NCBI GenBank assembly: GCA_022478985.1
Contig: JAKSZP010006618.1
Location: 124,001-188,000, forward strand
DNA from: Massospora cicadina
Taxonomy: Eukaryota > Entomophthoromycota > Entomophthoromycetes > Entomophthorales > Entomophthoraceae
DNA: 64,000 bases
Direction of reading: 5' to 3'
The position numbers and the translations under genes were made by a program. The notes beneath the pieces were generated by a model. The model saw only the letters and a list, made by a program, of their open reading frames with translations. It ran no database searches and was not told the origin of the DNA. Every line of letters begins with the position of its first letter. Within the stretch, counting starts at the first letter, position 1. Of the stretch, positions 4,708 to 57,517 are shown in pieces.

Positions 4708-4723
4708 TTGAATGCGCCTTTTT
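4708..4723. repeat. Target site duplication, left copy
   Basis: TTGAATGCGCCTTTTT matches TTGAACGCGCCTTTTT at 5,311-5,326 with one mismatch. The two flank the retroposed unit at 4,724-5,310. Confidence 0.65.
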
Positions 4724-5310: not shown

Positions 5311-5326
5311 TTGAACGCGCCTTTTT
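5311..5326. repeat. Target site duplication, right copy
   Basis: TTGAACGCGCCTTTTT pairs with 4,708-4,723 (one mismatch). Confidence 0.65.
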
Positions 5327-10489: not shown

Positions 10490-12447
10490 GATTGTACAAC
10501 GCCTTAAAAAATTTCAGCGGGTGATGGACACTATCCTCAGAGACCTCAAGCTTTCCTAAGATCTAGTACCTTAACAATATAGATGACTTCTTGCGTGCTT
10601 TTTCAAGCAATCAGAGAGCCTTCAAGAAACTTTTTATTGACTCACTTCTGAAGCGCTAAAAATAAAGCTTAAAAGCAATTTTTTCAGGAACAATTGAATA
10701 AATAGGTTTGTAATAGACATCAAAGGATTATTAAACAGACTGTCAAGGCTATGGTTCAAAAAGAGCATCCACTTTCAACAAAAATTGTGACATGCAGGTT
10801 TTCTTGGAGTTAGATGTTTATCAAAAGATTGTTTATAACCATTATCAATTGGATCAATGAACCATCCTTTGGTTTCAATAACAAAAAGCGTCCTTTGTTT
10901 GACCAAAAATTGTCAGCACGCCACCATCAAATTTTGGATAGTTTTTATCAATGCACTAGTTGTGAAATATCCACACATTAAGAAGGAGCTTATGTTGAGA
11001 GGACAACGCCTTCTTGTCAGCTATTGGCGCTGTGCACTTAATGGGTTAAGGAGAGGATATAGCATCCCATAGCCTGCTCCAATCTGAGTCTATACTGCCA
11101 CAAACGGAACTACATTTTCGCTAAATGGGAACGCCTTGTGGTAATTTACACCAATAGGGTTTTAATTTATATTTAAATTTAATAAAATAAAGATCATTAT
11201 GGACCACACGTCACTTTGCTGGTTTCAAAACCTGCACGACCCTGTGGGGCGACTAATGCATTGGTCCTTAAACTAAAAGCCTATAACTTCAAATTTGAAT
11301 TGACTTGGGATGAAATACCAAAACACAGATTTCCTATCATAATTACTACCCATTGCCATAGCATCATATTTGGAAGACCTCATGTATGAGAAAATGATTA
11401 GTGACTATTACTTCTAATAACCTCCAAATGTGATAAGAAACTTGGATAAAATACAAGAAAAATTTTTTATATGGCAAAATATTAAAAATTTAACAGAGTT
11501 ATCTCAAACTTTTAAAACTGTTGGGAAGGCCAATTATCATAAATGATGCACAAAAAGTGATAGAAAATGGAGGGCTACGTAATAAAATGGAGTTTATGAA
11601 GACTCGATACTATTGGGAAAGTGAGTGCTTTGTCTCCTAAAAATGATCTCATTCCGCCACCAGTGCCAAGTGGAGAGAATATTTGTCAAAAGGGTGTCAT
11701 ATAAAATGATAAAAGCTCGTTTAAATTGGTGAACCATATTCATTGATGTCTTTGGCACCCTGCCCACTGGTGATAACTGCTCAAAGTATATCATGGCGGC
11801 CATAGACCATCTGAAAAGATGGATAGAGGCACAAGCCATACAAGTCCTGGGCTATGTGACCATTGAAAGTCCTAAATTTGATCATTATCTAGAATAATGT
11901 GTACCCAAAGTTCATTCTCACTAAATTAGCACCAGTTTTACTTCAAATGTCATACATAAGTTAAATAAACACAAGGCAATTATAGAGTAATAATGACCTC
12001 CTATCAACTTAGTCAAATGGTACTATCAAATGTGTTCCTAGCCCTTTTTGATATACTTTAAAAGAAGCGGTGGACGTCTTGATATATTGGAGCACGCTCT
12101 TGACCACTGCCTTATTTGAATACATCAGCTATCATTTGACCATGGGGAAAAGCCCTTTACAGCTACTATACAGGTGACACCAAGAGCTGCCACCATTATA
12201 TTCTTGTATAGAAGAAAATACTAGCCTAGACTACACCCACTATTTGTTGACCCTGACTTCTATGATAGTATAGTAGAAAACTGAAGCTCTTAAACCAGCC
12301 TAGCAACAAAATTTTATTACTACAATGAGGATTTACATTGCAACGCCAAGCTACCAGGATTCAAGATAGGTAATAAGTGCAGTTCCATGATAAACATTGC
12401 TTTAGATGAAGAGGCGAATTTGCAAATGAATGGGTAGGTCCCTTTAA
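10490..12447 (+). pseudogene. Ty3/gypsy pol relic: RT, RNase H, integrase (gypsy-A)
   Basis: Pieces of one gypsy pol lie in order on the plus strand with many stops. RT (about 10,500-10,660) reads KNFQRVMDTILRDLKLS followed by a degraded YLDD region, matching FQRAMDTILGDLNLS in gypsy-B. RNase H (about 11,095-11,330) has RNY and a KLKAYNFKFEL end, matching the LKLQAYDFEI end in gypsy-B. Integrase core (about 11,740-11,860) reads DVFGTLPTGDNCSKYIMAAI, matching DVVGPLPTGANWCKYILVAI in gypsy-B. The integrase C-terminus reads NEWVGPFK at the right edge, where LINE 1 interrupts it. The most N-terminal RT and protease are missing. It belongs to the gypsy-B/D/E lineage. The element is dead. Confidence 0.7.
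12431..12447. repeat. LINE 1 target site duplication, left copy
   Basis: TGGGTAGGTCCCTTTAA is repeated exactly at 17,737-17,753. It encodes the W-V-G-P-F-K motif of the gypsy integrase C-terminus. Confidence 0.9.
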
Positions 12448-12589
12448 ATTTTAAATTTATTGCGGGGAAGGCTGACCATGGGACGGACACTTCCGAATAT
12501 GACTCAGGAAAGACAAAGTTAATACCAGGGGAGGCACCCCAGAGAAGCGATGCTATCTCTTGTTGCCAGCGGGAACGCCACTTATGGGG

Positions 12590-15500
12590 AGGGGGAGGGA
12601 ACGTATGAAGGGGCCGTAGCCACTATTGAGCACGTGTGGAGGAAGGGGTCTGATTTGATGAACCAGACTGGGAACCAGGAGGAGACCAGCTGTTGGTGAC
12701 GTGGTGGGAGGTGTCCAAACCTCCATGCTTTAAAAGTGGTCCACCAAATGAGACCAGAATCTGTGGACAGTTTCTGGGAGGGTGGGGGTGGAGCCTGCGA
12801 TGGCATCTAAGATGATAGTGTGGATGGTCCACATGGCGATTGCTACCACCAGGGCACGGAGGGAGAGTGGAAGGAGGAGGCCATTGATAGAGCAAACATA
12901 TCTCTTGACAGACTGAAGGGATGCGTTGTTCCTGGCCCAGCAGACGTTGAACTTCGCGTCATATCACTTTAGAGGTGGGGCACTTCTCCAGGCGGTGGAA
13001 CAGCGTTCCATACTGGCCACACACGACACAGGATGAGTGTAAAGCGTTAGAGAGCTCAGCTGTACGATACACCCGCCTCAGGCAGCGCCACACATGGGAG
13101 CGGACTTGAGGCTGAAACAGAGGATGGTGTGCGTATTTCCAGATAGTTTTTTGAGTCTCAATGGAATAAGGGATGTCCATCATGACCAGGTAGTCAACCC
13201 TGGATAGGACATGGGGCCGAATGGGGATCACGCCGTCATGGATGGGTAGCCCCTGTACCTCTTGTGTGAACTGAGGAGAGGGGCAGCCTCTTCAGGTTGT
13301 ATGTCCGCTAATACGAATTCTCCACTCTGCGCTTTGCATGGAGAGTAGGATTCGTTTGTAGTAGGTTTTAATCCCGTGAGGACCTGTGGCCGATGTGTGT
13401 GATGCAAGGTATTTCATCAGGGAGTGGGGGTTTGATGGATTGTTGAGGCCCAAGGCTTGGGAGAAGTTGGAGCGGGCCGCGAGGGACCAGTGTTGGGATG
13501 GGAGTGTAGGAGCAGTGACGGCTGAGATCCAGGTGCCCAGGATCTGGGCAGCATGGGCTTTGAAGTCAAGCAGGCCCATGCCACCTTGATGATGAGGACC
13601 AAACATGACCTCTAGCCATACTGGTGGAGGGCGGCCTGACCAAAGCCATCCTTGCAGCAAGGCATACAGGGATTTGAAGAAGCTTGGGGAGAAGGGGATG
13701 GCGTGGGCTCCGAACCAGACTTTGGATAGGAGCATAGAGTTGGCTAGAACAACCCTGCGGGTAAGGGTAGTAGGGTGGGCTCTGAGAGAGGCGATTCGCT
13801 TCGTCACGTTGTCCAGTATACGGCACTCCATTACTGCTGATGCATATCCGCCTGTCTCCATCCACACACCCAGATGGCGCACCGGTCCTATGGTAGGTCG
13901 TGGCATGAAGGGGAGCACCAGTGGAGCGGTGTGTGTTGAGTTAGTAAGGCGTGGACGTGGGCGAGCAGATGGGCTGGGTTGGGAACTCATTTGCTGGGGC
14001 CCAGCAGTTCTGAAACTGACCAAGGAGGACGATTTCGGTTTTGGAGGTGTTCAGTGCCGCGTTGCTTACCCGGGAATATTCCTGGATGAGGGCTTCAAGC
14101 GCGCGTGCATCTTTATTATTAGACACCCCCACCACGCAATCATCTGCAAATGCCATCATCTTGACTGGGGTTTGGCCTGGCACATGGACCCCAGTGAGTT
14201 GGGCATTCACATTTCGCAGTAGTGGGTCAAGGCTGAAGTTGTATAAGAGTGGGCTGAGGGGGTCCCCTTGTCGCAAGCCCCTTTGAGGGCGGACTAATTC
14301 CGTTAGGAAGCCTGGGCCACGCACTGCCATTGTTGCAGATTCCGTGAGCAGCATCACCTAGTTGATGAAGTGGGGGGGTAGGCGGAATTGATGGAGGCAG
14401 GCCCTTAGGTATTCCCAGTTTACTCTATCATAGGCCTTTTGTTGGTCCAAGAATACCAGCGCCCCAGAGGCTGTGGACTGACATGCATTAGCCACGGAGT
14501 GCACGTTATCCCAGGTTTGACCTTCTGGGGATGAAACCGAATTGTTCTGGGGAGATGGTGGCAAATGCTACAGTCCCTAAACGGTTAGCCATGATTTTTG
14601 TTAAAATTTTGGTGTCTGTGTTTGTTAGAGAAATGGGGCGCCAGTTGGCTAAGTCAAGCTTATCCCCTTTCTTGAAGAGTGTGACAGTAAAGGCCTCATG
14701 TCCTCCTGGTAGGAGGCGCGTTTCCAACAGGCTTTGGTTAAGTGAGGCGAGCAGCAATGGGGATATATATTTGAAATATTTTTTGTAGAACTCATATGGA
14801 ATGCCATCTGGGCCTGGGCATTTTCAGTTTGGTGCACCATGAATGGCTGTCCATAATTTGTTTGGAGTAATTAAATTCATTATTTCCAGGTATCAGAAAA
14901 TGGTGCAGATATGAGCTCGGTCAAGAAATTCCACCACTTCGGCTGACTGAATTGGTTCAGCTCAGTATAACTCAGAGTAATATTTTTGCGTTTCAATTGC
15001 CACTTCGGCCGGTGTGTCCACAATGGAATTATCTGATCTTCGTACCTGTGTGCAGGCCACGCTCTGGCATGGTGCAAAAATTTTTTAAAGAAATATGTGG
15101 TGCATTTGTCACCTTTTGTGATGCGTGTGGCCCTGTATTGGACACAAACCTGATGTTTGTGTTGCCTTTCAAGTGCGTTGAGGTGGGCGGCTGCCTCCGC
15201 CCACTTCCGGCCCCATGCAGGGCTGTATCCTGTAGCTGGAATGTTGGACTCCAAGTGTGCCAATTCCGCCAGAGCGCGCGAGATAACCACCAATGTGGCT
15301 CATGAGCGTCTGGAGGAGAGATGGCGAGAGTGGCGGATGGTGTCCTCTTTGAAAGTTGCTCATGTGGAAATGGGGTCCACGCAAAATGGTGCAACAAACG
15401 ATTTTGCTGAAGTTGCCTCTTCCACCCACGTGGAAAATTCTGGTGACGCGAGCTTGGGGGGCGGATTTTGCACCAATGTGGGGCCTTAGCAACTGTGACA

Positions 15501-16200
15501 GGTAGGTGGTAGGTTATTGAGACCAGTCAGTGGTCATAGAATTCCATTTTCGTTGTTTTATAGTGGGAGATGTGGGGTTGGATTTTCGCCGGCGTTAGAA
15601 TAAGGTCAATGCAGGTCATGGACCTTAATTGGCCATTGTGGATGTGGGGACGCGTCATGTTTTTGAGCAGCGGGGCATGTCATGGCAGCGCATCCATTAA
15701 CCCAAGGGTGGCCTTTAGAACGCGTAGTTCTACGTGACCCTGTGGGGCGTGGGGTGAGGGAGGCCACCAGTCCATTGGTGAGGTTAGCCAACAGTTCATG
15801 TCACCAACTAGGAAAGAATCAGGGGGTAGCGGAAGGGATTTGACTGACAAGAAAAATTCCCAACGCTTGTGTGCACCGTTTGGGGCATAGATGTTGATGA
15901 TTGCATGCGCTACATCAGCCCACAAGAAGGTGACGATGAGCACTCAGCCATTTAGGAATGTTTCTGAGGATGTGAATTTGAAAAAATTACTTTTCTGAAT
16001 TAGCACCCCACAGTGCTTTGACCAAAAGGATAGGGATGGGAGGAGCATTGTTTTCCAAGCTTCCTCGGAACCTCATGGACAGTGGGACTCCTGGATGGCC
16101 AGGATATCCACGGGTATATTGTGTTGTAAAAAACTCAGTTTCCTAGCCCAGGATGGGGAGGCCTTGAGTCCAGCATACGCAACGTCCCTAGAGTGAAGGT
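12590..16200 (-). pseudogene. LINE 1 ORF2: endonuclease, reverse transcriptase, zinc finger
   Basis: ORF2 would nick target DNA and copy the RNA by target-primed reverse transcription. The apurinic-type endonuclease (about 16,150-15,480) shows FLVGDMNCWLT at about 15,810-15,780, the GDxN motif, and FYDHWSV at about 15,545-15,525, in place of the SDH motif. The RT (about 14,760-13,940) shows FGFIPRRS, VFLDQQKAYDRVNWEYL, RQGDPLSPLLYNFSLDPLL and the catalytic FADD at about 14,155. A thumb and connector (14,020-13,290) contains GWLWSGRPPPVWLEVMFGP. A C-terminal zinc finger CVVCGQYGTLFHRLEKCP sits at about 13,045-12,990. Long open blocks remain (243 codons at 14,023-13,292), but frameshifts at about 13,940, 14,360 and 15,290 inactivate the whole. 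Confidence 0.85.
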
Positions 16201-16202
16201 TT

Positions 16203-16230
16203 CCCCCTTCGCACCTTAGGTGCGAGGGGG
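16203..16230 (-). promoter_or_regulatory. Palindrome over the ORF1 stop codon (LINE 1)
   Basis: Arms TCGCACCT (16,209-16,216) and AGGTGCGA (16,218-16,225) are perfectly complementary around one base. A C-run and a G-run extend the stem past one mismatch. The ORF1 stop (16,218-16,216, minus) lies at the apex. The same structure occurs at 45,218-45,240 in LINE 2. It may act in translation of ORF2 (inference). Confidence 0.6.
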
Positions 16231-17630
16231 TGGGCCCCCAGGCCCCCAGCCTCTTCTAGGGTCCCCACGGGCTTTCACAGCAGCGCGGGTGTTAGCAGCA
16301 ATGCTATCAGAGTTTTTGTTGATTTTTGCAGAAAGAGTCACATTGGTTTTGGCCTTCGCTTTTTGTTTTCCTGACGTCAGACGAATTTTTTGCGGTGCGG
16401 ATGAGTTTGGTGCACCATCGAGCGGGTCAAAAAAAATTTTTTCAGTTGGGATAGGTCCCAAGTCAGTTTTGACTGGAGCTTGGGTGCAACGATTAGGTGA
16501 GATCAAATATCCTATCGGATCCTCAGATTAAGTGGCCTGCTCAGCATGGGCTTCCCAATCTGATTGGATGATGGATTCCTGAGTTGCTTCCACCGCGAAG
16601 GTCTCCATGTCCTCCTGGAGTTGTGAGTGTGGGATAGCGGTGGTGGCCTTGGCCGCTTCCTTGGCCGCGGCCCTATGGGCCTGCTTGGCCTTCTTCCACT
16701 CCTGCAGGGAGATGGGCTTTACCAATAGGTAGCAGCCTTGTGCTCCCCACGGGAAAGCCTCCTTGGTGCTTGCAGTTAGTTTGTAGTGCGCCTCTCCATT
16801 GGCCATGGCCGCCGATGGGGTGCTCTTGGAATGTGATGCCCTCCTTGATGGGGCATGTGTGCGCCTTATGGCTGAACGCGTCACAGTGGGTGCAAATGGG
16901 GGGCGCGCTGTCCACGGTCACCCAGAATGGGTGGGTGGTATGCCCTGCGATATTAATAAAAGTGGAGTGCGGGATCTGGGTTAGGTCCTTCGCGATCTAC
17001 TCAGTTGGGGTCAGAACTGCGATGGCTTTGCCAGTGCAAAGGTGTGGCATCAGCGTGAAGTGTTGCATTTCAAAAGATTGTATTTCGCCATATATGGCGA
17101 GACCATCTTTCAGGTGTTGTTCCAAAATGTCACGTTTTACCATAGTAGGCAAAAAGTCAAACGTGAGGAAAATTTGGTTTGATTTTGTCCATCTGGTGTG
17201 TTTGGTTTCGACGACCTGTTGCCCTTCAGGGAGGTCGACCACTATGCGCACTGCTGCAGCCTCGTCTGCTGCTTTTTTGCTTTCAAAACCTAGGTCCAGC
17301 CAACCGCACAACATGTAGTGAGGTGCAACTTACATAGCGGTTGGGAAAACTTTGTGTACATCTTCACAAAATTTTTCCCATAAGGCCGTTTTTTGGATGT
17401 CCAGATACACATGGACTCCAAATTCCACTGACAAAAGTGGCTGGGAGTGTGGCGTGTTGATGTACTGGTTGTATCGTGCTTGCCATGTGAGTATCTCTAG
17501 GGAAATTGTGACCGCCAGTTTTAAGATTTTTGTCTATTCCGCCAGATTCTCTGGGGCGTTTTCAAACGTTGGAGGCCGCGGGCCTTCCACCTGCTCCTCT
17601 TACCTTGCTTGCCCAACTGCTCCCTGACAT
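16216..17630 (-). pseudogene. LINE 1 ORF1, nucleic-acid-binding protein
   Basis: ORF1 would bind the element RNA in the retrotransposition complex. An ATG at 17,630 opens the reading, which frameshifts near 17,570 and has further stops. A central block (about 17,310-17,000) gives SNQIFLTFDFLPTM then LEQHLKDGLAIY. The zinc knuckle (about 16,900-16,850) reads PPICTHCDAFSHKAHTCP, a complete C-x2-C-x4-H-x4-C. An Ala/Lys-rich basic segment (about 16,700-16,640) follows, and a Lys/Ala-rich tail (16,506-16,216) ends at a TAA inside a GC-rich palindrome. LINE 2 has the same order. The zinc knuckle is intact here but has His replaced by Asn in LINE 2. Confidence 0.8.
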
Positions 17631-17736
17631 GAGCGCAAACTAATCTCCTCTGTGAGATTATCAAACTAGATTCAGTCTTTAATTGAATAGGTTGCAAAAG
17701 TGTTTGCAACGAGAAAGAAAAGTTTTGGAAATCAGT

Positions 17737-17753
17737 TGGGTAGGTCCCTTTAA
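17737..17753. repeat. LINE 1 target site duplication, right copy
   Basis: Exact second copy of the 17-bp repeat at 12,431-12,447. Confidence 0.9.
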
Positions 17754-19395: not shown

Positions 19396-19910
19396 TGTTA
19401 TAAAATTGGCAGTTTTTGAGAGATACATAAAAGATTTTTTGCACAGGGTTTGCACAGGGTTTTCACAGGGTTCGACCCACTGAGCAATTAGGACCAATGA
19501 TATGATGATTGTTGTCCTCAACATAACAGAATGAACTTATAAATAAATATGGAGCACTCGCTCCCTCAACTCTCTTTTATTTAATATATTCTATACAGCA
19601 GATTCTCAGTGTTACACTCACTCTAAAACTACTAACAACTTATTTTCCTTGATCATCTCATCCCGCTTATATGGTAACGACTTTGGATGGTACCACTTTC
19701 GTGGCTTAGTAATTCACTTCACCATATCTCATTGGTTCCATTAATTATTCATTTGTCAATTCATGATTGCCCAATTTGGCTGATTTCTCAACAACCCAAT
19801 ATCGCCTCATTTCACAGTGCTCAATTAATTGTACTCATAACAACTTGGCGAATTCCGTCTGTTCTACCATATCAACTTAGAGCTTATTGTCCAGTCATAT
19901 TGGAATCGCG
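19396..19910 (-). repeat. Gypsy-B 3' LTR
   Basis: It aligns along its length with 24,842-25,340. Near 19,437-19,470 it carries three tandem copies of a GCACAGGGTTT-type unit where the other LTR has one. Its outer end is TGTTATAAAATTGG. Confidence 0.9.
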
Positions 19911-19940
19911 AAATTACCCCCTCCTTGACTGGACAATAAG
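19883..19940. repeat. Inverted repeat across the LTR and polypurine-tract junction
   Basis: CTTATTGTCCAGTCA (19,883-19,897) and TGACTGGACAATAAG (19,926-19,940) are perfect 15-bp complements separated by 28 nt. The spacer contains the LTR edge and the purine tract. The right arm lies in the internal region and has no counterpart beside the 5' LTR. Confidence 0.8.
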
Positions 19941-20980
19941 GCTCCTATTGCTTATACGCCCAGAGGAACTTTGCATGCACTTGGTTGATGATTCAACCAC
20001 TAGCAGGGTCCTTGATAGTATATGTGTTGACCCCTGTTCCTCAATGACTTTGAATGGACCAAAGTATATACTGGCCAGCTTGTGTTTCCACCCAAACCCA
20101 TTTTGGTCATGGAAAAGAACCATGTCACCTTCCTTGAACTGCACTAACCCGCTTCAATGTACCTGATCAGCGGCCTGATTCCTGATCTTCTTGGCTAAGC
20201 TGAAGTAATAGGCTTCAGTTTGAAATTTGGTCAGAATGTTTGCAAGGTTAGTCAAATAGCAGTGGGGTTCCACACCGCCGATTTCTTCCACACACAAATA
20301 AAGTAATGCTAGAAGAGCTGGGTGTTAGCTGTATAGTAGTTGGAAGGGACTCTTCCCAGTGGCGGAATAGTAACTGATGTTATAGGCAAACACGGCAGTG
20401 GAAAGAAGGGAGGTCCAATCAGATGGTCAATCCGTTACTAATTTTCACAGGATATTCACCAGAGTCCCATTCACTTATTCAACCATTCCATTAGATTCAG
20501 GGTGGTATGGGGTCATTAGAACCCCATGGATAGCCATAAGCTCATTAAGTTTGGGGAAGATGTGCGAGGTGAAATTGGTTCCATTATCAGTGAGAATAAA
20601 CTGAGGGCATCCATGTCGCTGAATATGCACTCCATTACAAGCTTAGCCACTGTAACTGCACCCAAGTCTTGTATTGCCCTTGCTTCAACCCACCGGGTCA
20701 AGTGGTTGATAGCCACAAGAATGTACTTACACCAGTTAGCTCCTGTTGGCAAGGGACCAACGACATCCAGGGAAACAGTATGCCAAGAAAAATGGGGTTT
20801 TACTACATGATAAGAAGTCTTACGGTGGAATGGCTTCTCCACTTGGCACTGATGGCAACAAGAAATGGTTTTGAGCACATCAAAGTTCATACTTTCCCAA
20901 TAGTACTGAGGGTGCAACAACTCCATTGTCTTGCACACTCCACCATGTCTGACTGCCTTGTGGGCACTCATAATAATTTC
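19914..20980 (-). pseudogene. Gypsy-B integrase
   Basis: Integrase would insert the cDNA into the genome. The zinc-binding part (from 20,971) has YYWES then SCCHQCQVEK, the C-x-x-C of the H2C2 finger. The catalytic core shows SLDVVGPLPTGANWCKYI (first Asp, about 20,785-20,735), LTDNGTNF (second Asp, about 20,590) and SNGMVE (Glu, about 20,485), so the DDE triad is visible. A frameshift near 20,620 separates the first Asp from the rest. The C-terminal domain (20,144-19,914) has GDMVLF and YFGPFKV, the GPY/F motif. Stops occur after the Glu. Confidence 0.85.
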
Positions 20981-21209
20981 CAGCTGGGCTGAGGGTCACG
21001 GAAGACTCACCGTAGAATCACTAATCTACTTGTACAGTTCCCCATTCCATTGGAAAGTATTTGTTCGCATCTCATTTAATGCTTTGATCACTTGGGGTGG
21101 TTCATAGTCATACTTTCCGCTGATCATCTTAATGTACATCACATCGCTGAGATCCACCGTCACCACAACAGTTGGCAATCGAGATAAACAGTCAGCGTTC
21201 TGATGCTTT

Positions 21210-24841: not shown

Positions 24842-25340
24842 TGTTTATAAAATTGGCAGTATTTGAGAGATATGCCAACAGATTTTTTGCACAGGGGTTG
24901 ACCCACTGAGCAATTAGGACCAATGATATGATGATTGTTGTCCTCAACACAACAGAATAAATTTATAAATAAATAAATATGGAGCACTCGCTCCCTCAAC
25001 TCTCTTTTATTTAATATATTCAATACAGTGGTTTCTCGCTGTTACACTCACTCTAAAACTACTAATAACTTATTTCCTCAATCATCTCATCTCACCTGTA
25101 TGGTAATGACTTTGGATGGTACTGCTTTCATGGCTTAGTAATTCACTTCGCCGTATCTCATTGGTTCTGCCAATTAATAATTCTTCAATTCACAATCGCT
25201 CAATCCAGCTGATTTCCCAACAAACCAATATCACCTCATTTCGCAGTGCTCAATTAATTTGTACTCATAACAACTTGGCAAATTACATCTGTTTCACCAT
25301 TTTGACTTAAGGCTTATCATCCAGTCATATCAGAATCGCG
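24842..25340 (-). repeat. Gypsy-B 5' LTR
   Basis: It matches 19,396-19,910. Its sense-strand 3' edge, TTTTATAAACA, is followed by the primer-binding site. Confidence 0.9.
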
Positions 25341-25348
25341 ATAGACAT
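25341..25348. repeat. Gypsy-B flanking direct repeat, right copy
   Basis: ATAGACAT, identical to 19,388-19,395. Confidence 0.6.
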
Positions 25349-29508: not shown

Positions 29509-29523
29509 AAAATCACCATAGTA
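29509..29523. repeat. SINE-1 target site duplication, left copy
   Basis: AAAATCACCATAGTA, identical to 29,811-29,825. Confidence 0.95.
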
Positions 29524-29810
29524 GGGGGTGGAAGGCGAGTCAGTAAGGGTGTACAGCTACCAACCTGAAGGTTGTGGGTTCGATTCCCGCCCTTCACACA
29601 TCAATCAGGGTGCCAGCCAAAGGAAGCTATTGGCGGTTAGTAGGTCTCATAACACGAAAACTTCACCCATGACGTAACCAGAAAATTTGAGTCCCAATCA
29701 GGAGGTGGAAAAACTTTCTTTGACGGAGTTGACCCTGTTCAGGTTTCATGTTGTTTCTTTCTTTTAGTAATGCCTGTCCCCTGGTCAGCTTGCCTTGGTT
29801 GAATAAAATA
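29524..29810 (+). mobile_element. SINE-1, complete tRNA-derived SINE
   Basis: A 287-bp unit between perfect 15-bp target duplications. The head is tRNA-like. GTGGAAG at its start and CCTTCAC pair as an acceptor stem with one mismatch. GTGGG-TTCGATT-CCCGC is a proper T arm with a 7-nt loop, and GGTTCGATTCC matches the RNA polymerase III B box exactly. The D and anticodon arms have decayed. The body (29,600-29,775) is unrelated to the other SINE family. The 3' end, GTCCCCTGGTCAGCTTGCC (29,776-29,794), matches the LINE 3' end in this window, and an AATAAAATA tail follows. It sits inside gypsy-C between integrase and RNase H. The exact duplication suggests the youngest clear insertion here. Confidence 0.9.
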
Positions 29811-37999: not shown

Positions 38000-40772
38000 T
38001 AATCTTTAGTATTCATCACTCCAACATGATTCACCTTGTGGTTGGGCCCCTTAGCCTTGTAATGGCTAGCATAGTGCCCTTTCATGCCTCATTGGTGACA
38101 TGTGATGTGACAGATGACAGTTTCTTCCAGGTCTGGTGGCTTTCATGAGGTTATCTTTGGTGTTCTTCTAGAGGCTTGCTTCGGTTTTCTTGGTTATTAA
38201 ATACCCCTGATTGGGTGCTTCAAAAGTCGCACTGCAGCTATGGAGATAGTACACCATCTAAAATAAATTATAAAATATTGTTTAATAATGGTAACATGAC
38301 CTGGTACGCTAATTATGAGAGTTTAACATGAGTTTTGCGAGGCAATCTGAGCGTTGTAGTCATTCAAGGCTCTTGCGCCATATAGCATTTGAGCCTTGAG
38401 GTAAAAGCAATCAGCAAAATCTAGTATTTGTGCATACATTTAGAATAAAGTATTAAGGAAGGCTGTCTTCCTTGACATCATCTCCTCTATGTCAGATTTC
38501 TTTATGATGATGCTTTTTTTCATTTTGGTAAAGAAGCACAGTATCACTAATTCTGAACTCATCATTACTTGACTCTCTGGTCTAACGAGTTAATTAGCAT
38601 TTCCAGATTAGCCTTCTTGCTTACGATCTATGCCAATCTTGAATAGTGACAAGAAGGTGTGAATGTATCACATCTTGTCAACCTTAAATAGATTAATAGG
38701 TTTAACCACATAAGTGCTAGCATCATCAGTTTGTTAGACGTGGCCTTGTGGCACAGTCAAAAGTCAGTGCTGGCAGCCCTTGAGTCATAGTTCAAGTAAG
38801 TCTAGATTAGTAGACAAGCAGTTGACATATGGCGAGCTGGTGTTTCATTGTGGTAGTCTGGGACAGTTGTGGTGACATGGGTAGGAATTCTGGAATAATG
38901 GTACAATTAAGTCTTTTGGGGATAGATAATTAAGTTATAACTACTGAAATACTTTGTACCATGAGCGCCTTGTCACTTTCAGATTTTGAGTCTGTTAAGC
39001 TTAACCCATGCACGTTGGTGAAGAAGTCTAATAATTCTCTGCGGGAGAGACCTGCTGGAGTCTGCAGAGTTCACTTCTGATTTTGTCCCAGAACTGGTAT
39101 AGTCTATTAGAAAGGTATTGGCGCTCATGATGCAAGGATTTCTAGACCTCTATAAAACTTTAGTTATGTGGTTGCAAGCTGAAGTTCCAGGGCAACATTT
39201 TCATTGGTGAGGTGTGAAATTATCAGGCCTTGTGCCCATGCTAGGTCGTTCAACAAGGTAGATTCTCCATATATATGGGTTTAAGATTAAATAGCTCTGC
39301 TCCGAGCTCCTTTGCAGCTGCGGAGCCTGTTCTTACCAGCCCAAATGCTCCACTTGAAGTCTTGAAACTTGGTATTGTGATCAATCAGTGTATCTGAGAG
39401 GTAGCTAAGCTGCCAAACCAACTTTTCGACCAACTACCTGATGGTTCAACTCATCTGAGCACGGCCTCTTAATTAGCATCCTCCAAAATTACATGCTGCG
39501 CCACTTCTGTTCTCAGGTATTCTATACCCTGGACTCAGTTTTAAGTCACGTCGTCTGCTTCATTGAGATGATTCCACATGCTGGTCCAATATTTTGCCAA
39601 TGATATGAGCCAAATTGCATTCAGTTGGTCAGTAAGTTTGTCTAATCAGTGATTAGCTTCACCTGCCTGATTGCGATTGCATGAAAATTTGCGCAATTAT
39701 CTCAAAAAGTGCCATCCAATTGGTCAATCAGTAGCTAGTTTGACCTGAATTGAGCCTATACAAACTTGAACATTCTTATGAACTTTATGTGATGTTTGGT
39801 GAGGATCTTAATAATTTGGCAGTTTGATGTATGTATGTATGTATGTATGTATGTATGTATGTATGTATGTATGTATGTATGTATGTATGTATGTATGTAT
39901 GTATGTATGTATGTATGTATGTATGTATGTATGTATGTATGTATGTATGTATGTATGTATGTATGTATGTATGTATGTATGTATGTATGTATGTATGTAT
40001 GTATGTATGTATGTATGTATGTATGTATGTATGTATGTATGTATGTATGTGTATGTATGTATGTATGTATGTATGTATGTATGTATGTATGTATGTATGT
40101 ATGTATGTATGTATGTATGTATGTATGTATGTATGTATGTATGTATGTATGTATGTATGTATGTATGTATGTATGTATGTATGTATGTATGTATGTATGT
40201 ATGTATGTATGTATGTATGTATGTATGTATGTATGTATGTATGTATGTATGTATGTATGTATGTATGTATGTATGTATGTATGTATGTATGTATGTATGT
40301 ATGTATGTATGTATGTATGTATGTATCAGGCGATCATTTTGAATATCTGCGCCTGAGTAGAAATCTTCTTGATTATGACAGATATCATCATTTCTCTAAA
40401 ATTTTAATAATTCACGTACAGATATTGATGTTGTCTCTTAGCTTCTGAGCATCCATAAGTGGACTTCGTTGATAGATTTGGCGGAGATAAACCTACAAAA
40501 GAGCCTTTCATGACCTCCTTGAAATGTTTGGGGAGGGATACGTTAGCCATCTGGCCTAATGATTGAGACGCTAGCAGCCCTTTGGGGATGAGCTCCATGG
40601 ATGGAGTGTCATTCTCCTAATTATCCAAACTGTTGAGGTGAGAGTGATCTTCGTATGAAGCTTCTAAGTCCATGAGTGGAGGGATTCTTGTACCCAAAGC
40701 TGATAGTAAAGAAACTGAGGTATTGACTCAAGGTATTTTGATTATTGGTTTCTCTATGGCTTGTTGAAAGTG
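38000..40772 (-). pseudogene. Gypsy-D gag, split by a microsatellite
   Basis: The N-terminal part (about 40,740-40,400) stays almost open and reads MELIPKGLLASQSLGQMANV and LPKHFKEVMKGSFVGLSPPN, with one stop upstream. The microsatellite at 39,827-40,326 follows in the middle of the gag region. A zinc-knuckle remnant GMKGHYASHYKAKG lies at about 38,105-38,050, with two of three Cys ligands lost. The rest of the interval is heavily mutated. The assignment rests on position between the primer site and protease, plus the knuckle trace. Confidence 0.55.
39827..40326. repeat. 500-bp (ATGT)n microsatellite
   Basis: About 125 tandem ATGT units in two perfect runs, about 222 bp and 276 bp, separated by a single extra GT at about 40,049-40,052. 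Because the period is 4, three reading frames are open throughout and produce artificial YVCM-repeat proteins. Confidence 0.98.
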
Positions 40773-43623: not shown

Positions 43624-43882
43624 AAAACTTTTCTTTCTCGTTGCAATCAATAATTGCAACTGATTCAATTCAAGACTGGTAAGCTTGATAATTAACATGA
43701 GAAGATGAGTGTGCGCCCAACGTTGGGTAAAGATTGGGCGAGCGTATAAAGGGCACAGGGTCAGTCTTCGCATCATCAAAATTTTGAGAACACCTTGGAA
43801 AATCCAGCGGCCAAGATAAAACAAAGAAAACAGCGGCGAATATATTTCTGGATATTTTATTCTGACAAGCAAAATGCAACCA

Positions 43883-43899
43883 TTACATAAAACTCCACA
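43883..43899. repeat. SINE-2a target site duplication, left copy
   Basis: TTACATAAAACTCCACA, one mismatch from 44,028-44,044. Confidence 0.85.
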
Positions 43900-44027
43900 A
43901 GGGTGGTTAGCCAAGCAGGTAAAACTGCTTTCACCCTAAATGCAGGTTTTGAGTTTGAAACCTGTACTGGCTAGAAGACATCTCGGTGTGGTATATTTGT
44001 CCCAAGGTTGAACCACCTCAAATAATT
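43900..44027 (+). mobile_element. SINE-2a, tRNA-derived SINE inside LINE 2
   Basis: A 128-bp unit between 17-bp target duplications (one mismatch). The head TAGCCAAGCAGG (43,908-43,919) fits the polymerase III A-box consensus. GAGTTTGAAACC (about 43,950) is a B-box-like element shared with copy 2b. The 3' end TTTGTCCCAAGGTTGAACC (43,997-44,015) resembles the LINE 3' end TTTGTCCCATGGTCAGCC. It splits sequence homologous to the LINE 1 5' region, so it inserted into LINE 2. Confidence 0.8.
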
Positions 44028-44044
44028 TTACATCAAACTCCACA
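44028..44044. repeat. SINE-2a target site duplication, right copy
   Basis: TTACATCAAACTCCACA; native LINE sequence, as shown by the corresponding LINE 1 region. Confidence 0.85.
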
Positions 44045-45230
44045 TTAAACGTCCCTATCATCTGTGGAGCATAGAATTTGAGGTTTTCTGGATATTATAT
44101 AATGGAATTTTGGGAAAGGTTCAGAGGTGATGTGCACAAAATACTTCCCAGACGCTGTATATGTTGCACTTCATTTATGACCCATGGATGGTTGGACCTC
44201 AGGTTAAAACTGTGCAAGCAGTGGATGCCGCTGTATAGGTGCATGTGGTAGGCAATCACCTGTATGGTCAACGGGTTGTCAAAACAAAGCGCATGCATTG
44301 GACCAAGTCAAACAAAATTTTTGGCAATTTTGACTTCCTCCCCACAATGGTAAAAAGTGAAGTACTGGAGCACTACCTCTCAGTTGAGCTTAAAAGCTAT
44401 AGGAAACTTCAATATTTTGAAATGCAGTGCTTCACGCTTATGCCAGAGCATAGCATGGGCAAAGCAATTGCAGTGTTCACCCCTACCATGGTCATTGTGG
44501 AAGACTTAACCCAAATTCCCCACACCGCAGTTATCAGTATTGATGGGCAGGAATCCTACCCATTCCGCATTATAGTAGTTAGTGCACCCCATATCTGCAC
44601 CTTTTGTCATGCTTTTGGCAATAAGGCACACACCTGCCCTTCCATAGAGGGCATCACTCAGAATGAAATCCTCTCAAAGCAATGGGAAGACATGACTCCC
44701 ATTACAAACCTGCCATTGATACCAATGCCGCCTTCTCATGGGGTGCACAGGGGGATTATAATCAGTTGAAACCTGTGTCCCCACAAGAGCGCAAGTAGCC
44801 AAACAGGCCCATAGAGCAGCAGCCAAGGCAGCGGCTACAGCTGCATCTGTGGTCATGCCTGTCCAGACCTAAGCTGACATCAAGTCATTTGCGGCTGAAG
44901 CGGCTTGGGGATTGCTCACCAATTAAATCTGGGCCCACCATTCTGCAGACCAGGTGTTTGAGTCAGATTCTCCCGTGAAAGTTACTAAGCACCATTTGAA
45001 ACCAAACTCTCCCACCTGACCTCTCCAAGATTTTTTCAAGCTCCAATGCTGCACCAAAGGAGAGCCTTAATATAAAAATTGACCTAAATCAAAAAACACC
45101 AAAACTGATACTAAACTCAGCTAAGGATATCCTCAAGGACACATACATAGGGGTGCAAACCTGATTGTAAAAAGCAGCTGCTGATCAAGTGGTGCAGGAA
45201 GGGAAAGGGGGTCCATTCCATCGCACCTAA
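44045..45230 (+). pseudogene. LINE 2 ORF1
   Basis: The RNA-binding ORF1 of LINE 2. The best open block (44,239-44,769, 176 codons) reads RVVKTKRMHWTKSNKIF, FDFLPTMVKSEVLEHYL and FEMQCFTLMPEHSMGKAIAV, collinear with LINE 1. The zinc knuckle CTFCHAFGNKAHTC (44,600-44,641) has Asn in place of the His ligand, so metal binding would be lost. An Ala-rich basic tract and a stop-ridden tail follow to the TAA at 45,228-45,230 inside a palindrome. The start codon seen in LINE 1 is not conserved. Confidence 0.8.
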
Positions 45231-45240
45231 GGTGCGATGG
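45218..45240 (+). promoter_or_regulatory. Perfect palindrome over the ORF1 stop codon (LINE 2)
   Basis: CCATCGCACCT (45,218-45,228) and AGGTGCGATGG (45,230-45,240) pair perfectly around one base, 11-bp arms. The stop TAA (45,228-45,230) lies at the apex, as in LINE 1. The arms extend past the base mismatched in LINE 1 with an A-T pair. Confidence 0.7.
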
Positions 45241-48200
45241 GGGTCTCCTTCACTGTAAGGACATTAAAAATTGCTGGACTTAAGCCTCGCTGTCCTGGGC
45301 TAGAAAGATGAGTTTCTGTTAAAACTTTACCTGTGGACATCCTGAAATTCAGGAATCCCATCGTCCACACAGTGCCAAGGACACATGGGCATCCATGCTC
45401 CTCCCCTCCCTTTCTTTTTTGTAACCGCACTGTGGGGTGCTTACATGCGCAACCCATAGGTTTATATTTATATCTAAAAATTTGTATCTTGATGGTTTTA
45501 TGATGGCCATGTCCTTTTCATGGGATGATGAAGTACACGCTATAATTAATATATACACCCTGACCTGTGCGTGGCTCACTAAGATTTCTCTTGGCCATAA
45601 CTTCCCTCCCATTTCCACCTGATCCATTTGTGGTGGGCGACCAGAACTGCTGGGCCAACCTGGCCACCAACCTCTGGCCTTCAACGCCTACCCCCTGTGG
45701 GGCGCATCAAACTCCAAGTTCTAAAAACTACCTTGGGGATTTTTAATACCCTCTTTAAGCATGCACTGTTGCTACCCAACATGTCCTGTCCCCATGTGCA
45801 CAACAGTCAACTGAGGTCTATGTCGCGCATCAACCTCATTCTTGTCCCATTGAAATTTAGCACCATATTGTGCACTTTACAACAACAAAAACTGATTTCT
45901 CCAACTACATGATGGCGTCAATTTCCTTCACTTTATTAAACCCAGAGGCACAGGCACATAAGTGATGAAAACTTTGTCCAGCCAAGATCACATCGCCCAT
46001 GCTTTCAGCATGAGTGGATACCACAACTTTGGCACTAGAGTTCGCTACATTATTCTGTGTTGATCCACTTTCTACCTGGTCAGGCTTCACAGCAAACACC
46101 AGCCTTCAGGCACACCATATCTCATCATAATGCTCTAGAGCTGCCACAGCGGTCATTAAGTGCATGCTAGCAGAATTGGACAACCTAGAGTCCAACGTCC
46201 CTGCAGCAGGGTACAGCCCAGCTTGGGGGTCAAAAGTGGGAAGAAGTGTCTGATTGTCTCAACGCACTGGTAAGACAACGCAAATATCGCGTTTGTGTTC
46301 AGTTCAAGGCAAAAGATACAGCAAATGACACGTGCACCGCCTACTCTTATTCTGCAAATTCTTTGCACTGCAACAGATCTTGGCCTGCATGCAGGTGAGG
46401 CAGCTGGACAACTTCGTCACAGACACTCCAGCTGAAGTGTCTTTCTAAGTTTGAACCTTCCAAACCAAGTTGTATAAGTCTGATCCTTTCAAACCTGCTG
46501 CAATTGATGATTTTCTCAATTGTGCTCATATCTGCACCATTTCCAGATACTCATAGTTAATATCTCTAATTTCTTGTGATGAACTCTGGTATGCCATTCA
46601 TGGTGCACCGCACAGGAAGTGCTCAGGTCTAGATAAGATTTTATTGAGTTCTGTAAAAAATTTTAATTTTTTCTCCTCAGTAATGCTTGCCTCAATAAAC
46701 AAATGTCTTTAAAACGCGTCTCCTTCCTGAGGGGCCAGGAGGCCTACATGATAAAGCTGTATAAGAAAGGAAATAATTTGGACTTGGCTAACTGGCACAC
46801 CCATCACTTACTAATACAGATACTAAGTTTTTTACCAAAATCATGACCAACTGCCTAGGGGAGTTTCTTAAAAAGTAATATCCTCTGAGCAGTTCAGTTT
46901 CATCCCCAAGAGATCAATATGGGATAACGTCCACAACATGACCAATGTCTTCCAATCCACGGCTACTGGGGCGCTTGTGTTAGACAAGCAAAAAGCTCAT
47001 AATAAAATCAACTGGGATTACCTAAAAACCCACCTCCAAAAATGTACCTCCCCAACCAGTTCATTAATTGGGTGATGTTGCTCTTGGAGTCTTCCACAAT
47101 GGCTGTGCGTGGCCCTGGTTTCTCACCAAAGTGGTTCACCATCAAAGGGGTCTCCGCCTAGGGGACCCTTTAAGCCCACTTTTATACAACTTCAGCCTCG
47201 ACCCACTTTTGGGAAATGTGAATGCCTGCCTTGCTGGTGTGCATAGGCAAGGCCAAGCACCTGTCAGGATGCTGACATTCTCTGACAACTGTTTGGGTGG
47301 AGTGTCTAACAACCATGGTTCACGAGCGCTGGAGGAAACTATCCAGGATTACTTCAGGGTCAGTAATGTCGCCCTTAATGCCAACAAACCAAAAGAATTC
47401 TCATCAGCCGGTACCAAGCCCCATAGTTAGTCTGTTCTGGCAGCTAGATCTCTGTTTCCTTGCCCCAGTCACCCCATACTTCCCCAATTGTGCTCCTTTT
47501 TGTGCCAAGATCCACTGCTGGTCCAGTGTGCCATTTATAAGTGTAGCTGGAGGCGGGAGGGTTCGCCTCATTGGTAATGGAGCACCACATCCTAGACAAT
47601 GTCACGAAGTGCATCGCCTCTCTCAGAGCACACCAGACTACCATCACAGGATGAGTTGTGCAAGCCAACTCTATGCTCCTGTCAATAGTCTGATTTTTGT
47701 ACCATGACATCGCCTTTTACCCCTCTTTCTTCTCCTCGCTATATGCCTTCCTACAAGGGTGGCTTTGGTTAGGCCGCCCTCCCCCTGTGCGCCTGGATGT
47801 CATGTTTGGCCCTCGTCATAGTGCTGTTATGGGCCTGCTCAACTTCAAGGCCCATGCCACCAAATACTTGGCACCTGGATTGCTGCAGTAATCAACCCCA
47901 CACTCACAGACATTACTAGGCATGCGCAGCCTTTTTTATTTTCCCAAGCCTTTGCCTCCGCAATCCTACCCACCCCCATCCTCTACTTAACTCTCTAGAC
48001 TCTATCCCTCTGCCACAGGTCCACATGGTATGACCCACTTCAAAATTATTCTCCTCTACATGTGGAGCACTGAGTAGAGAATCAGCATCAGTGACACACC
48101 ACACAGAGGTGTCACCCTACTCTTGTTTCAAACAAAAAGTCCATATGCAAGCCTTTTTGAACAGCCTGGTACCCCACAGTGTCCCCCCTCGTTGCCTGTG

Positions 48201-48800
48201 TGGACTATCTTGACAAGCTGGGCATCCCATACTCTCTGGAGACCCAGAAGGACATTTGGCGGTACACACGCCATCCTATGTTACAACCCCAGATTCGCGA
48301 TCATGTGTGGAGATGCCTGAGAAAGTTTTCCTGTCTGCTGAGAGGTTCAATGCTTCTCAATCTTCATGCATTGTGTGTGTGATTAATATGGGTCATTAGT
48401 CCATCACATGGAAGATTTCCTGACGTCACAGGCGATCTGGTGGGATATGCGCCTCTTTTTCCAGAAGCGTGAACAGACATTTATCTTAACTAAAAACATC
48501 TTCGCCTTTTTCATGACCTCCCCTATCCACCCTTATCTCCGTGCCTTAATTGTTGCAATAACACTATGGATGATCCACACTATTGTCCTTGATGCACTGT
48601 CTGGCATTACGCCAACCCTCCGTGAAGCTGTGCGTCACTTCCACTCCCACCTCACAGATCACTTTCAAGCTTGGTTTTTAGGCAACCTGCCATCCCACCT
48701 ACGCTGGGTTGGCGTCATTCTGGCTCCCCATCTGGTTCCTCTCGTCAGCTTTTTCCTTCATTCATGTTCAGTTTTGGCCTAGGCCTCCCCTGTCACTCCC
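45241..48800 (+). pseudogene. LINE 2 ORF2: endonuclease, reverse transcriptase, zinc finger
   Basis: Collinear with LINE 1 ORF2 but more decayed. The endonuclease region (about 45,520-45,900) has HAIINIYTLTCA; the GDMN motif region is degraded. RT (about 46,880-47,430): FSFIPKRS-like block, LVLDKQKAHNKINWDYLKT, then VRGPGFSPKWFTIKGVSA with LLYNFSLDPLLGNVNACL, then FSDNCLGG at about 47,280, where the catalytic FADD is changed to FSDN. The connector GWLWLGRPPPVRLDVMFGP lies at about 47,757-47,813, and the C-terminal part (VDYLDKLGIPYSLETQKDIW, about 48,200-48,260) matches LINE 1. The final zinc finger is lost. Confidence 0.8.
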
Positions 48801-48958
48801 CCTCTTACTTACACTGGCAGTCTTGCTGGCAACAGGAGTTAGCTTCAGCTCCTCTGGATGCCCCTAGGTTTTATTGGTGTTTTGTAGTTAATGTTTATTA
48901 GAAGTGTTTGTCCCATGGTCAGCCTTCCCCAATTTTATCTAAAAAATTTAATTTTTAA

Positions 48959-55388: not shown

Positions 55389-55398
55389 CAATTCCAAG
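55389..55398. repeat. SINE-2b target duplication, left copy
   Basis: CAATTCCAAG, one mismatch from 55,565-55,574. Confidence 0.5.
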
Positions 55399-55564
55399 AG
55401 GGTGGTTATCCTGGCAGGGAAATTCCTGATTCCATTCCTAGTGCCGTTTTGTTCAATACAAGTTTGAAACCTGTACTGGTTAGAAAACTTCTCGTTGTGG
55501 TATACTTGTCCTATGGTTGACACAGCTCAAAACCTTTTTTTCTTTTTTTTCTTTTTATAGTAGC
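55399..55564 (+). mobile_element. SINE-2b, second copy of the SINE-2 family
   Basis: It shares with 43,900-44,027 the head GGGTGGTTA, the block GTTTGAAACCTGTACTGG (55,460-55,477), a TCTCG-x-TGTGGTATA run and the 3' tail TTGTCCTATGGTTGA. A long T-rich tract (about 55,537-55,558) follows. The internal part after the head differs. Flanks show a 10-bp duplication with one mismatch. It lies inside gypsy-E between protease and RT. Confidence 0.7.
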
Positions 55565-57512: not shown

Positions 57513-57517
57513 TCTAG
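57513..57517. repeat. Gypsy-F target duplication, left copy
   Basis: TCTAG, repeated at 63,546-63,550. Confidence 0.9.

What the first reader, a model, noticed from the sequence alone, without database searches (positions are those of the whole stretch)
29776..29810. Two unrelated SINE heads share the 3' tail of the resident LINE
SINE-1 ends GTCCCCTGGTCAGCTTGCC (29,776). SINE-2 ends TTTGTCCCAAGGTTGAACC (43,997) and TTGTCCTATGGTTGA (55,507). Both LINE copies end TTTGTCCCATGGTCAGCC or GTCCCATGGTCAGCC (48,907; 12,484 on minus). Matching 3' tails between a LINE and SINEs are the known signature of SINEs that borrow the LINE reverse transcriptase. Here two SINE families with different tRNA heads and bodies seem to have captured the same tail. 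SINE/LINE tail pairs are well described in animals and plants and less so in the kind of genome this seems to be.
Basis: partly seen in the sequence, partly recalled or inferred. Interest (0 to 1): 0.8.

Follow-up and report, generated by a model that had tools for sequence, protein, structure and literature searches.

The report
Fungal SINEs borrowing LINE tail hairpin
In the huge, repeat-filled genome of what is probably a cicada-infecting fungus, short 'freeloader' repeats end in the same small RNA hairpin as resident LINE retrotransposons, which is how such repeats are thought to borrow a LINE's copying enzyme.

Summary
The window lies in a 1.47-Gb genome, probably Massospora cicadina (inferred). 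SINE-1 is a real repeat: 21 copies aligned, target-site duplications in 6 of 6 tested. LINE-A is bounded by a 17-nt duplication, so the motif is terminal. SINE-1's tail is closest to a sister LINE outside the window (LINE-C, 27/29 hairpin positions). The tail is a 29-nt hairpin with compensatory arm changes. It ends LINE-A, -B, -C, -F, ORF1-only elements of about 1.9 kb, and SINE-1. A model from 8 LINE tails finds 8 of 8 SINE-1 copies and 5 of 6 ORF1-only tails in 290 kb. SINE-2's tail does not beat shuffles against LINE or SINE-1 tails pairwise; it is linked through a third family, SINE-3, and a SINE-2/3 model that ranks type I tails (LINE, ORF1-only, E) next. Bodies are unrelated. Best reading: L1-like LINEs that recognise a 3' hairpin, used by at least two, probably three, SINE families. 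The mechanism is known; this host was not found in print.

The parts
29524..29810 (+). SINE-1 copy: tRNA-like head (A box and GGTTCGATTCC B box, read by eye), body, 3' tail
   Evidence: 21 copies (this one and 20 fetched of the 40 best places) share the 5' end GGGGGTGGAAGG (one AGGGGTGG) and the 3' end; genome search lists 40 scored matches at 91-100% out of 5521 first-look candidates; the head of one of four copies given to Rfam aligns end to end to the tRNA model, 25.4 bits, below the cutoff of 29
29766..29794 (+). 3' hairpin of SINE-1 (type I: AGTAA.GCC / AGC.TTGCC, loop TGTCCCCTGGTC)
   Evidence: LINE-only model R2, E 4.2e-7; in alignment A2; this copy alone does not fold better than shuffles (z 0.02)
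29509..29523 (+). 5' target-site duplication of SINE-1, AAAATCACCATAGTA
   Evidence: 0 of 60 shuffles reach the score
29811..29825 (+). 3' target-site duplication of SINE-1
43900..44027 (+). SINE-2a, nested in the 5' part of LINE-B
   Evidence: duplications at 43883-43899 and 44028-44044; here LINE-B is about 142 nt longer than LINE-A, the size of the SINE plus one duplication (from the coordinates)
43985..44017 (+). 3' hairpin of SINE-2a (type II: GGTG.GGT ... CACC, longer loop)
   Evidence: this copy alone does not fold better than shuffles (z 0.80)
55398..55560 (+). SINE-2b
   Evidence: similarity to SINE-2a; imperfect duplication TAGACAATTCCAA / TAGCCAACTCCAA, not beyond shuffles
55494..55526 (+). 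3' hairpin region of SINE-2b (decayed arms)
12448..17736 (-). LINE-A, about 5.3 kb, bounded at both ends, with broken frames: ORF1 with zinc knuckle (by eye), then an ORF2 with reverse transcriptase (L1-like)
   Evidence: duplications TTAAAGGGACCTACCCA at 12431-12447 and 17737-17753; RVT_1 above the cutoff in two ORF2 pieces
12466..12494 (-). 3' hairpin of LINE-A (GGAAG.GTC ... AGC CTTCC)
43624..48940 (+). LINE-B (about 65% DNA identity to LINE-A), carrying SINE-2a
   Evidence: RVT_1 in one piece at 25.6 bits, below the cutoff of 29.6; ends approximate, no duplication found in the window
48900..48928 (+). 3' hairpin of LINE-B (AGAAG ... CTTCC)

Best explanation
The shared tail is the 3' recognition element of a group of L1-like LINEs (families A, B, C, F): a 29-nt RNA hairpin (5-bp arm, one bulged U, 3-bp inner stem, conserved loop YGTCCCMTGGTC), followed by a short AATAAA-type end that in some families is repeated as (AAATTTAAA)n. 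The LINE reverse transcriptase binds this hairpin and starts target-primed reverse transcription at the A/T-rich end. Any transcript that acquires the last 40 nt or so can be copied in trans. SINE-1, SINE-3 and probably SINE-2 (tRNA-like heads, unrelated bodies) and an ORF1-only element of about 1.9 kb did so. Shown here: the sequences, terminal position, duplications, covariation and unrelated bodies. Inferred: binding by the reverse transcriptase, mobilisation in trans, transcription of the SINEs by polymerase III.
For: Bare motif in the window: 3 matches against 0.14 expected, all at element ends. LINE-only model R2 (8 tails) over 290,255 bases: 8 of 8 distinct SINE-1 copies present at E 6e-11 to 4e-7; 5 of the 6 ORF1-only tails (which I had found by motif before) at E 4e-10 to 1.4e-7; E tail (L029) 3e-9; apart from two decayed LINE tails (2e-4, 3e-4) nothing else is below 0.09. 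Covariation on 21 distinct rows: 88.7% of cells paired against 79.0 in shuffles, score 0.348 against 0.164, 0 of 500 for both; slides of 1-3 columns give 18-61% paired. Of 19 unpaired cells 15 sit at columns 1 and 22, mostly G to A; among 20 SINE-1 copies 160 of 214 differences from one CpG-rich copy are C>T/G>A at CpG, so decay after insertion is a likely cause (inference). Duplications flank 6 of 6 SINE-1 tested, LINE-A (window), LINE-B (L048) and LINE-C (L040). AATTTAAA/AAATTTAA follows the hairpin in 10 of 19 LINE, ORF1-only, E and SINE-3 tails against 0.86% of random 47-mers, as expected if the end slips during initiation. Bodies: of 12 pairs that include a SINE only S3-LINEA (3 of 200 shuffles) is near the edge.
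Against: SINE-2 tails do not match LINE-A, LINE-C or SINE-1 tails beyond shuffles pairwise and are not found by R2 (0 of 5); SINE-3 reaches only E 0.1-0.2 with R2 (3 of 3). Single-sequence folding is not always better than shuffles: z from -3.1 to +0.8 over 12 tails, including -0.02 for LINE-C and +0.02 for the window's SINE-1. The number of pairs with a change on both sides (4 against 2.9, 42 of 500 shuffles reach it) and of further pair types (490 of 500) is not clearly above shuffles. Copies are related, so counts are not independent events: the independent evidence is about four arm types, two of them seen in one copy each. One ORF1-only copy (L030) fits the hairpin poorly (E 0.42). The (AAATTTAAA)n end is absent from the two LINE-C, the LINE-F and the E tails in the 19, and SINE-1 and SINE-2 were not among the 19. 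No experiment.
Confidence: 0.86

Rival explanations
1. The tail was inherited by descent: the SINEs and ORF1-only elements are deletion derivatives of a LINE that kept its 3' end, and the hairpin has no recognition role.
For: ORF1-only elements very likely do derive from a LINE (ORF1-like protein, best blastp E 6.6e-7 to LINE-A ORF1, and similar 5' starts). The donor of every tail must be some LINE.
Against: Inherited but useless sequence would not keep pairing: arms change on both sides. SINE bodies show no LINE sequence next to the tail. The same 40 nt or so are kept in at least six families (LINE-A, -B, -C, -F, ORF1-only, SINE-1) while the rest differs.
Confidence: 0.08
2. SINE-2 and SINE-3 (type II tail, longer loop, GGTG/CACC arms) depend on a different LINE, not sampled here, whose 3' hairpin resembles type I only distantly or by convergence.
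For: R2 does not find SINE-2, and SINE-3 only at E 0.1-0.2; types I and II differ in loop length; SINE-2 fails against LINE tails pairwise.
Against: The type II model R3 gives 8 LINE, ORF1-only or E tails among its ten best hits after training rows (best E 1.7e-6, L046; the rest 0.006-0.13). SINE-3 matches LINE-C and an ORF1-only tail beyond all 200 shuffles. The loop GTCCC.nGGT and the end CCTCGAATAAA are shared. No LINE with a type II tail was seen in the 290 kb.
Confidence: 0.3
3. Chance similarity of short AT/GC-rich 3' ends.
For: SINE-2's bare motif is at chance level.
Against: R2 E-values of 6e-11 to 4e-7 for SINE-1, 27 of 29 hairpin positions shared with LINE-C, many copies.
Confidence: 0.01

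Closest known systems
SINE/LINE pairs with a shared stringent 3' tail (eel UnaL2 and its SINEs, salmon SmaI and others; cited in PMC3747384 and PMC5135761, passages read)
   Same: SINE ends in the 3' end of a LINE; 3' hairpin; short terminal repeat; bodies unrelated
   Different: By PMC5135761 such LINEs are enriched in L2, CR1, RTE and Tad1 clades; here the LINE looks L1-like, in an early-diverging fungus; no experiment here
Monocot L1 lineage with ZmSINE2/ZmSINE3 and sorghum SINEs (PMC3747384 section 4.3, read)
   Same: L1-clade LINE, conserved last 45-50 nt shared with SINEs, hairpin with compensatory changes and variable arms but conserved loop and 3' flank
   Different: Plant; loop UCU and flank CGAG there, loop GTCCCMTGGTC and flank usually CTCGAATAAA-like here
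Fungal pairs Mg-SINE with MgL/MGR583 and SINE2-1_BG with Tad1-24_BG (table in PMC3747384)
   Same: Fungal SINE with LINE tail
   Different: Ascomycetes (recalled); Tad1 clade by the second name and by PMC5135761.
HAL1 (half-L1) of mammals (recalled; only its occurrence in papers was seen in a search listing)
   Same: ORF1-only, non-autonomous L1 derivative
   Different: Here with a shared 3' hairpin; about 1.9 kb; in a fungus

Membership tests
SINE/LINE pair of the stringent type | SINE 3' end matches the 3' end of a LINE of the same genome | tested here: met
   SINE-1 with LINE-C 27/29 hairpin positions, E 6e-11 to 4e-7 with LINE-only model; SINE-3 pairwise (0 of 200 shuffles against LINE-C) but E 0.1-0.2 with the model; SINE-2 only through SINE-3, an ORF1-only tail and model R3
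SINE/LINE pair of the stringent type | no similarity outside the tail | tested here: met
   of 12 body pairs with a SINE, 11 have 17 or more of 200 shuffles reaching the score; S3-LINEA has 3 of 200
SINE/LINE pair of the stringent type | 3' stem-loop with compensatory changes | tested here: met
   type I: (strong on two of five measures plus cells changed on both sides); type II: (weaker)
SINE/LINE pair of the stringent type | 3' end needed for retrotransposition | not testable with these tools
   no assay
SINE (tRNA-derived) | tRNA-like head with A and B boxes | tested here: inconclusive
   Rfam tRNA match in 1 of 4 SINE-1 loci given (25.4 bits, full length, cutoff 29), none in L033 (SINE-3) or L036 (SINE-2), none for SINE-2a; ARAGORN 0 genes in 31 loci and in the window; boxes read by eye
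SINE (tRNA-derived) | many copies flanked by target-site duplications | tested here: met
   SINE-1: 40 scored places (a cap) of 5521 candidates; duplications in 6 of 6 copies tested
L1-clade LINE | reverse transcriptase nearest to L1 | tested here: inconclusive
   LINE-C piece: LINE-1 ORF2 protein entries 98-99 bits, R2 entries 53-69; no Tad1, R1 or Jockey reference could be compared; published text gives L1 LINEs as 6.3% of the M. cicadina genome (PMC10515909, passages)
L1-clade LINE | APE endonuclease, C-terminal zinc knuckle (zf-RVT), no RNase H | tested here: inconclusive
   zf-RVT 20.2 bits, below the cutoff of 27.5; endonuclease piece had no Pfam match; RNase H not seen in the pieces scanned
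Half-LINE (HAL1-like) element | ORF1 without ORF2, same ends as the LINE | tested here: inconclusive
   no LINE-A ORF2 piece matches inside three 1.9-kb spans at E up to 10; ORF1 similarity 6.6e-7 (L047), 2.4e-5 (L046), 0.096 (L035); same 3' hairpin in 5 of 6; duplications that set the 5' ends are individually weak (p 0.05-0.55)

The most novel reading that the evidence does not exclude
L1-group LINEs of an early-diverging fungus still use stringent recognition of a 3' hairpin, as monocot L1s do and mammalian L1s do not, so hairpin recognition would be ancestral to the L1 group; and one hairpin whose arms drift by compensatory change serves a whole guild (at least four LINE families, ORF1-only elements, three SINE families).
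Probability: 0.4. Interest if true: 0.75.

Novelty: new member of a known kind. Interest (0 to 1): 0.58.

Why it matters
Whether L1 LINEs first recognised a specific 3' hairpin and later relaxed to poly(A), or the reverse, is put as two models still to be tested in PMC3747384 (passages). A fungal L1-like LINE with a covarying terminal hairpin shared with SINEs is an outgroup data point for plants and vertebrates and gives natural hairpin variants to test. It also gives a concrete account of part of the repeat load of a fungal genome of about 1.5 Gb, for which the entomophthoralean comparison seen here (passages) names L1 LINEs but not SINEs (0 occurrences of 'SINE' in its main text).

Tried and rejected
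Chance similarity was rejected for SINE-1 and kept open for bare SINE-2 strings. The idea that SINE-1 took its tail from the window's LINEs was set behind LINE-C. Another LINE in the same genome (L044, L038) ends differently (...CATCTAGTACTAAAAAAA) and model R1 gave no strong hit there, so the tail is not on every LINE here. ARAGORN found no tRNA in the SINE heads. A scan of viral contigs with the LINE-A tail gave 0. Upstream identities printed come from an alignment with free end gaps and few aligned columns and were dropped; one search is used instead. In one search, matches for LINE-B in the window and for ORF1-only copy L046 were set aside as low-complexity, and LINE-F (L030) as ambiguous, although 0 shuffles reach them; 11 of 27 tails had at least one shuffle reaching the score (LINE-A L037, one SINE-3, SINE-2b, SINE-2 L030, L005, S4 and five of six ORF1-only copies). 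No paper on SINEs of this fungus or order was found: searches (open-access library only).

Full report
What the window is. An ORF2 piece of the window's LINE-A matches two hypothetical proteins of Massospora cicadina at 84% (74% of the query) and 61% (85%) identity, and the window's own assembly has 1,469,884,898 bases in 16,968 contigs. The published M. cicadina assembly is 1.488 Gb (PMC9584336, first of three parts of the text read). The species is therefore inferred, not stated by a tool.

The elements. SINE-1 (29524-29810) is one of many similar copies: the search scored 40 places, all matching at 91-100%, out of 5521 first-look candidates (a capped list of the best). Twenty-one copies were aligned (the window's and 20 fetched, chosen from those 40): all start at GGGGGTGG (one with AGGGGTGG) and all end in the same tail, beyond which the flanks differ. 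The head of one of four copies given to Rfam aligns end to end to the tRNA model at 25.4 bits, below the cutoff of 29. SINE-2 has two copies here. SINE-2a sits inside LINE-B: at that place LINE-B is about 142 nt longer than LINE-A (coordinates), the size of the SINE plus one duplication, so it moved after LINE-B did. LINE-A and LINE-B are two old, broken families at about 65% DNA identity. Two LINE-A pieces match RVT_1 above the cutoff, one LINE-B piece below it (25.6 against 29.6 bits).

Terminal position. A search for duplications between the 3' flank and upstream sequence covered 27 tails. Sixteen had no shuffle reaching the score (60 shuffles for short spans, 20 for long ones): 6 of 6 SINE-1, LINE-A in the window (17 of 17 nt), LINE-B in L048 (15 of 15), LINE-C in L040 (13 of 13), SINE-2a, SINE-2 in L036, two of three SINE-3, and three that I set aside as low-complexity or ambiguous (LINE-B in the window, ORF1-only L046, LINE-F L030). 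In the thirteen others the hairpin begins 38-51 nt before the duplication.

The tail is a hairpin and more elements carry it. A BLAST of the window's elements against 226 kb of the same genome showed SINE-1's last 45 nt or so at the end of another LINE, LINE-C (L040:6684-9049; L006:1-214), and of further elements. Scanning by motif and model gave: LINE-A (window, L037, L043; decayed L008), LINE-B (window, L048; decayed L045), LINE-C (L040, L006), LINE-F (L030), an unplaced tail E (L029, near a contig start), ORF1-only elements D (L040, L047, L046, L035, L036, L030), SINE-3 (two in L033, one in L007) and a possible SINE-4 (L036). SINE-3 has its own tRNA-like head by eye (GGGGAGGATACCCCAGTGGTAGAATAGGG...GAGTTCGATTCC) in L033.

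Covariation. In the type I alignment (22 rows, 21 distinct) the eight-pair stem pairs in 88.7% of cells against 79.0% in shuffles, with covariation score 0.348 against 0.164 and 16 cells changed on both sides against 5.6 (0 of 500 for each); slides of 1-3 columns give 18-61%. Position 3-27 is U-A in 8, U-G in 7 and A-U in 6 rows; position 5-25 is A-U in 13 and G-C in 7. At the family level these are a few independent changes (GGAAG/CTTCC, GGTAA/TTACC, and in one copy each GGTAG/CTACC and GGATG/CATCC). Against: pairs with a change on both sides (4 against 2.9; 42 of 500) and further pair types (490 of 500) are not clearly above shuffles, and single-sequence folding is mixed (z -3.1 to +0.8 over 12). 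Fifteen of the 19 unpaired cells are at columns 1 and 22, mostly G to A. Among 20 SINE-1 copies, 160 of 214 differences from one CpG-rich copy are C>T/G>A at CpG, so these stems were probably better paired when inserted (inference). The type II tails (9 rows) pair in 88.9% of cells against 85.1% (27 of 500), score 0.222 against 0.155 (14 of 500): weaker.

Held-out tests. A model from eight LINE tails (R2) run on 290,255 bases found 8 of 8 distinct SINE-1 copies (the window's copy appears twice, as window and L001), 5 of the 6 ORF1-only tails that I had found by motif, and E, all at E below 1e-6; two decayed LINE tails at 2e-4 and 3e-4; and nothing else below 0.09. SINE-3 scored 0.1-0.2 (3 of 3) and SINE-2 was not listed up to E 5 (0 of 5). 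The converse model from type II tails (R3) gave, after its nine training rows, ten next hits of which eight are type I tails: ORF1-only L046 at 1.7e-6, L035 0.006, L040 0.01 and L047 0.12; E L029 0.025; LINE-C L040 0.037; LINE-B L048 0.11; LINE-F L030 0.13. The other two are L046:1-23, cut by the end of the stretch, and L036:4385. Pairwise tail scores, one copy a family: S1-LINEC 57, S1-D 43, S1-LINEA 26, S2-S3 35, S3-D 28, S3-LINEC 27 (0 of 200 shuffles each); S2-D 20, S3-LINEA 22 and S1-S3 21 (1 of 200 each); S2-LINEA 15 (22 of 200), S2-LINEC 12 (98 of 200) and S1-S2 12 (95 of 200) are not beyond shuffles. So SINE-2 joins the group through SINE-3 and an ORF1-only tail, and at profile level.

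ORF1-only elements. Three D copies have an upstream match to their 3' flank at 1,885, 1,901 and 1,878 nt (individually weak: p 0.3, 0.05, 0.55), and what follows resembles LINE starts (a CTTTTCTTTC-like tract plus, in two of three, a small hairpin). Their protein resembles LINE ORF1 (best blastp 6.6e-7 for L047, 2.4e-5 for L046, 0.096 for L035; a CX2CX4HX4C knuckle by eye), and no LINE-A ORF2 piece matches inside the three spans at E up to 10.

How it most likely works. As in the stringent LINEs reviewed in PMC3747384 and PMC5135761 (passages), the reverse transcriptase would recognise the 3' hairpin and start copying at the A/T-rich end. The variable (AAATTTAAA)n ends look like the slippage repeats of such LINEs: 10 of 19 LINE, ORF1-only, E and SINE-3 tails have AATTTAAA or AAATTTAA within 46 nt, against 0.86% of random 47-mers; the two LINE-C, the LINE-F and the E tails do not, and SINE-1 and SINE-2 were not in that count. 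Transcripts with a borrowed tail would be copied in trans. Recognition and copying are inferred.

Comparison. Shared SINE/LINE tails are known, including in fungi (Mg-SINE/MgL; SINE2-1_BG/Tad1-24_BG; table seen). The closest parallel is the monocot L1 lineage with ZmSINE2/3 (section 4.3 read), also with compensatory changes. The LINE here is nearer to LINE-1 ORF2 protein entries (98-99 bits) than to R2 entries (53-69) in the only references available, and M. cicadina is reported to have 6.3% L1 LINEs (PMC10515909, passages). Clade membership is not proven here.

Limits. The sample is the window plus 226 kb of a 1.47-Gb genome; of the 28 loci, 8 were fetched as SINE-1 matches and 20 are stretches of contigs known because they hold a SINE-1 elsewhere. 

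Noticed in passing
L047:2476-4397 (-), L040:1586-3496 (-), L030:2431-4334 (-): ORF1-only, roughly 1.9-kb non-autonomous LINE derivatives (HAL1-like) with a 3' hairpin of the LINEs (L030 poorly fitting) and LINE-like 5' starts.
   Followed up: partly
window 17677-17736 (-); L048:9632-9691 (-); L040:3805-3864 (+); L040:3437-3496 (-); L030:4275-4334 (-): 5' ends of LINE-A, -B, -C and ORF1-only elements share a CTTTTCTTTC-like tract; in LINE-A, LINE-B and two of three ORF1-only copies folded it is followed by a hairpin with differing arms (GTTGCAA/TTGCAAC, GCTTGA/TCAAGC, TGCTCAA/TTGAGCA). A 5' structure under selection?
   Followed up: partly
L001, L009-L028 (SINE-1 copies): 160 of 214 differences of 20 SINE-1 copies from one CpG-rich copy are C>T/G>A at CpG sites (40 of 285 positions), suggesting CpG methylation and deamination in this fungus.
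   Followed up: yes
L044:9-1600 and L038:200-820: A further LINE with a zf-RVT-like domain (26.8 bits, cutoff 27.5) whose 3' end (CATCTAGTACTAAAAAAA) lacks the hairpin; one SINE-1 copy (L021) lies right behind such an end.
   Followed up: partly
window 39827-40326: A 500-bp (ATGT)n microsatellite, 99% matches.
   Followed up: no
window 20516-20995 (-): Open frame that looks by eye like a Ty3-type integrase piece.
   Followed up: no
window 57513-58411 and 62652-63546; 4719-5312 and 10403-9820 (inverted); 19398-19911 and 24845-25341: Other dispersed repeat pairs at 78-83% identity, not identified.
   Followed up: no
L036:3783-3826 (-): Possible fourth SINE-like element with a type II tail; head not defined, no duplication beyond shuffles.
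   Followed up: partly
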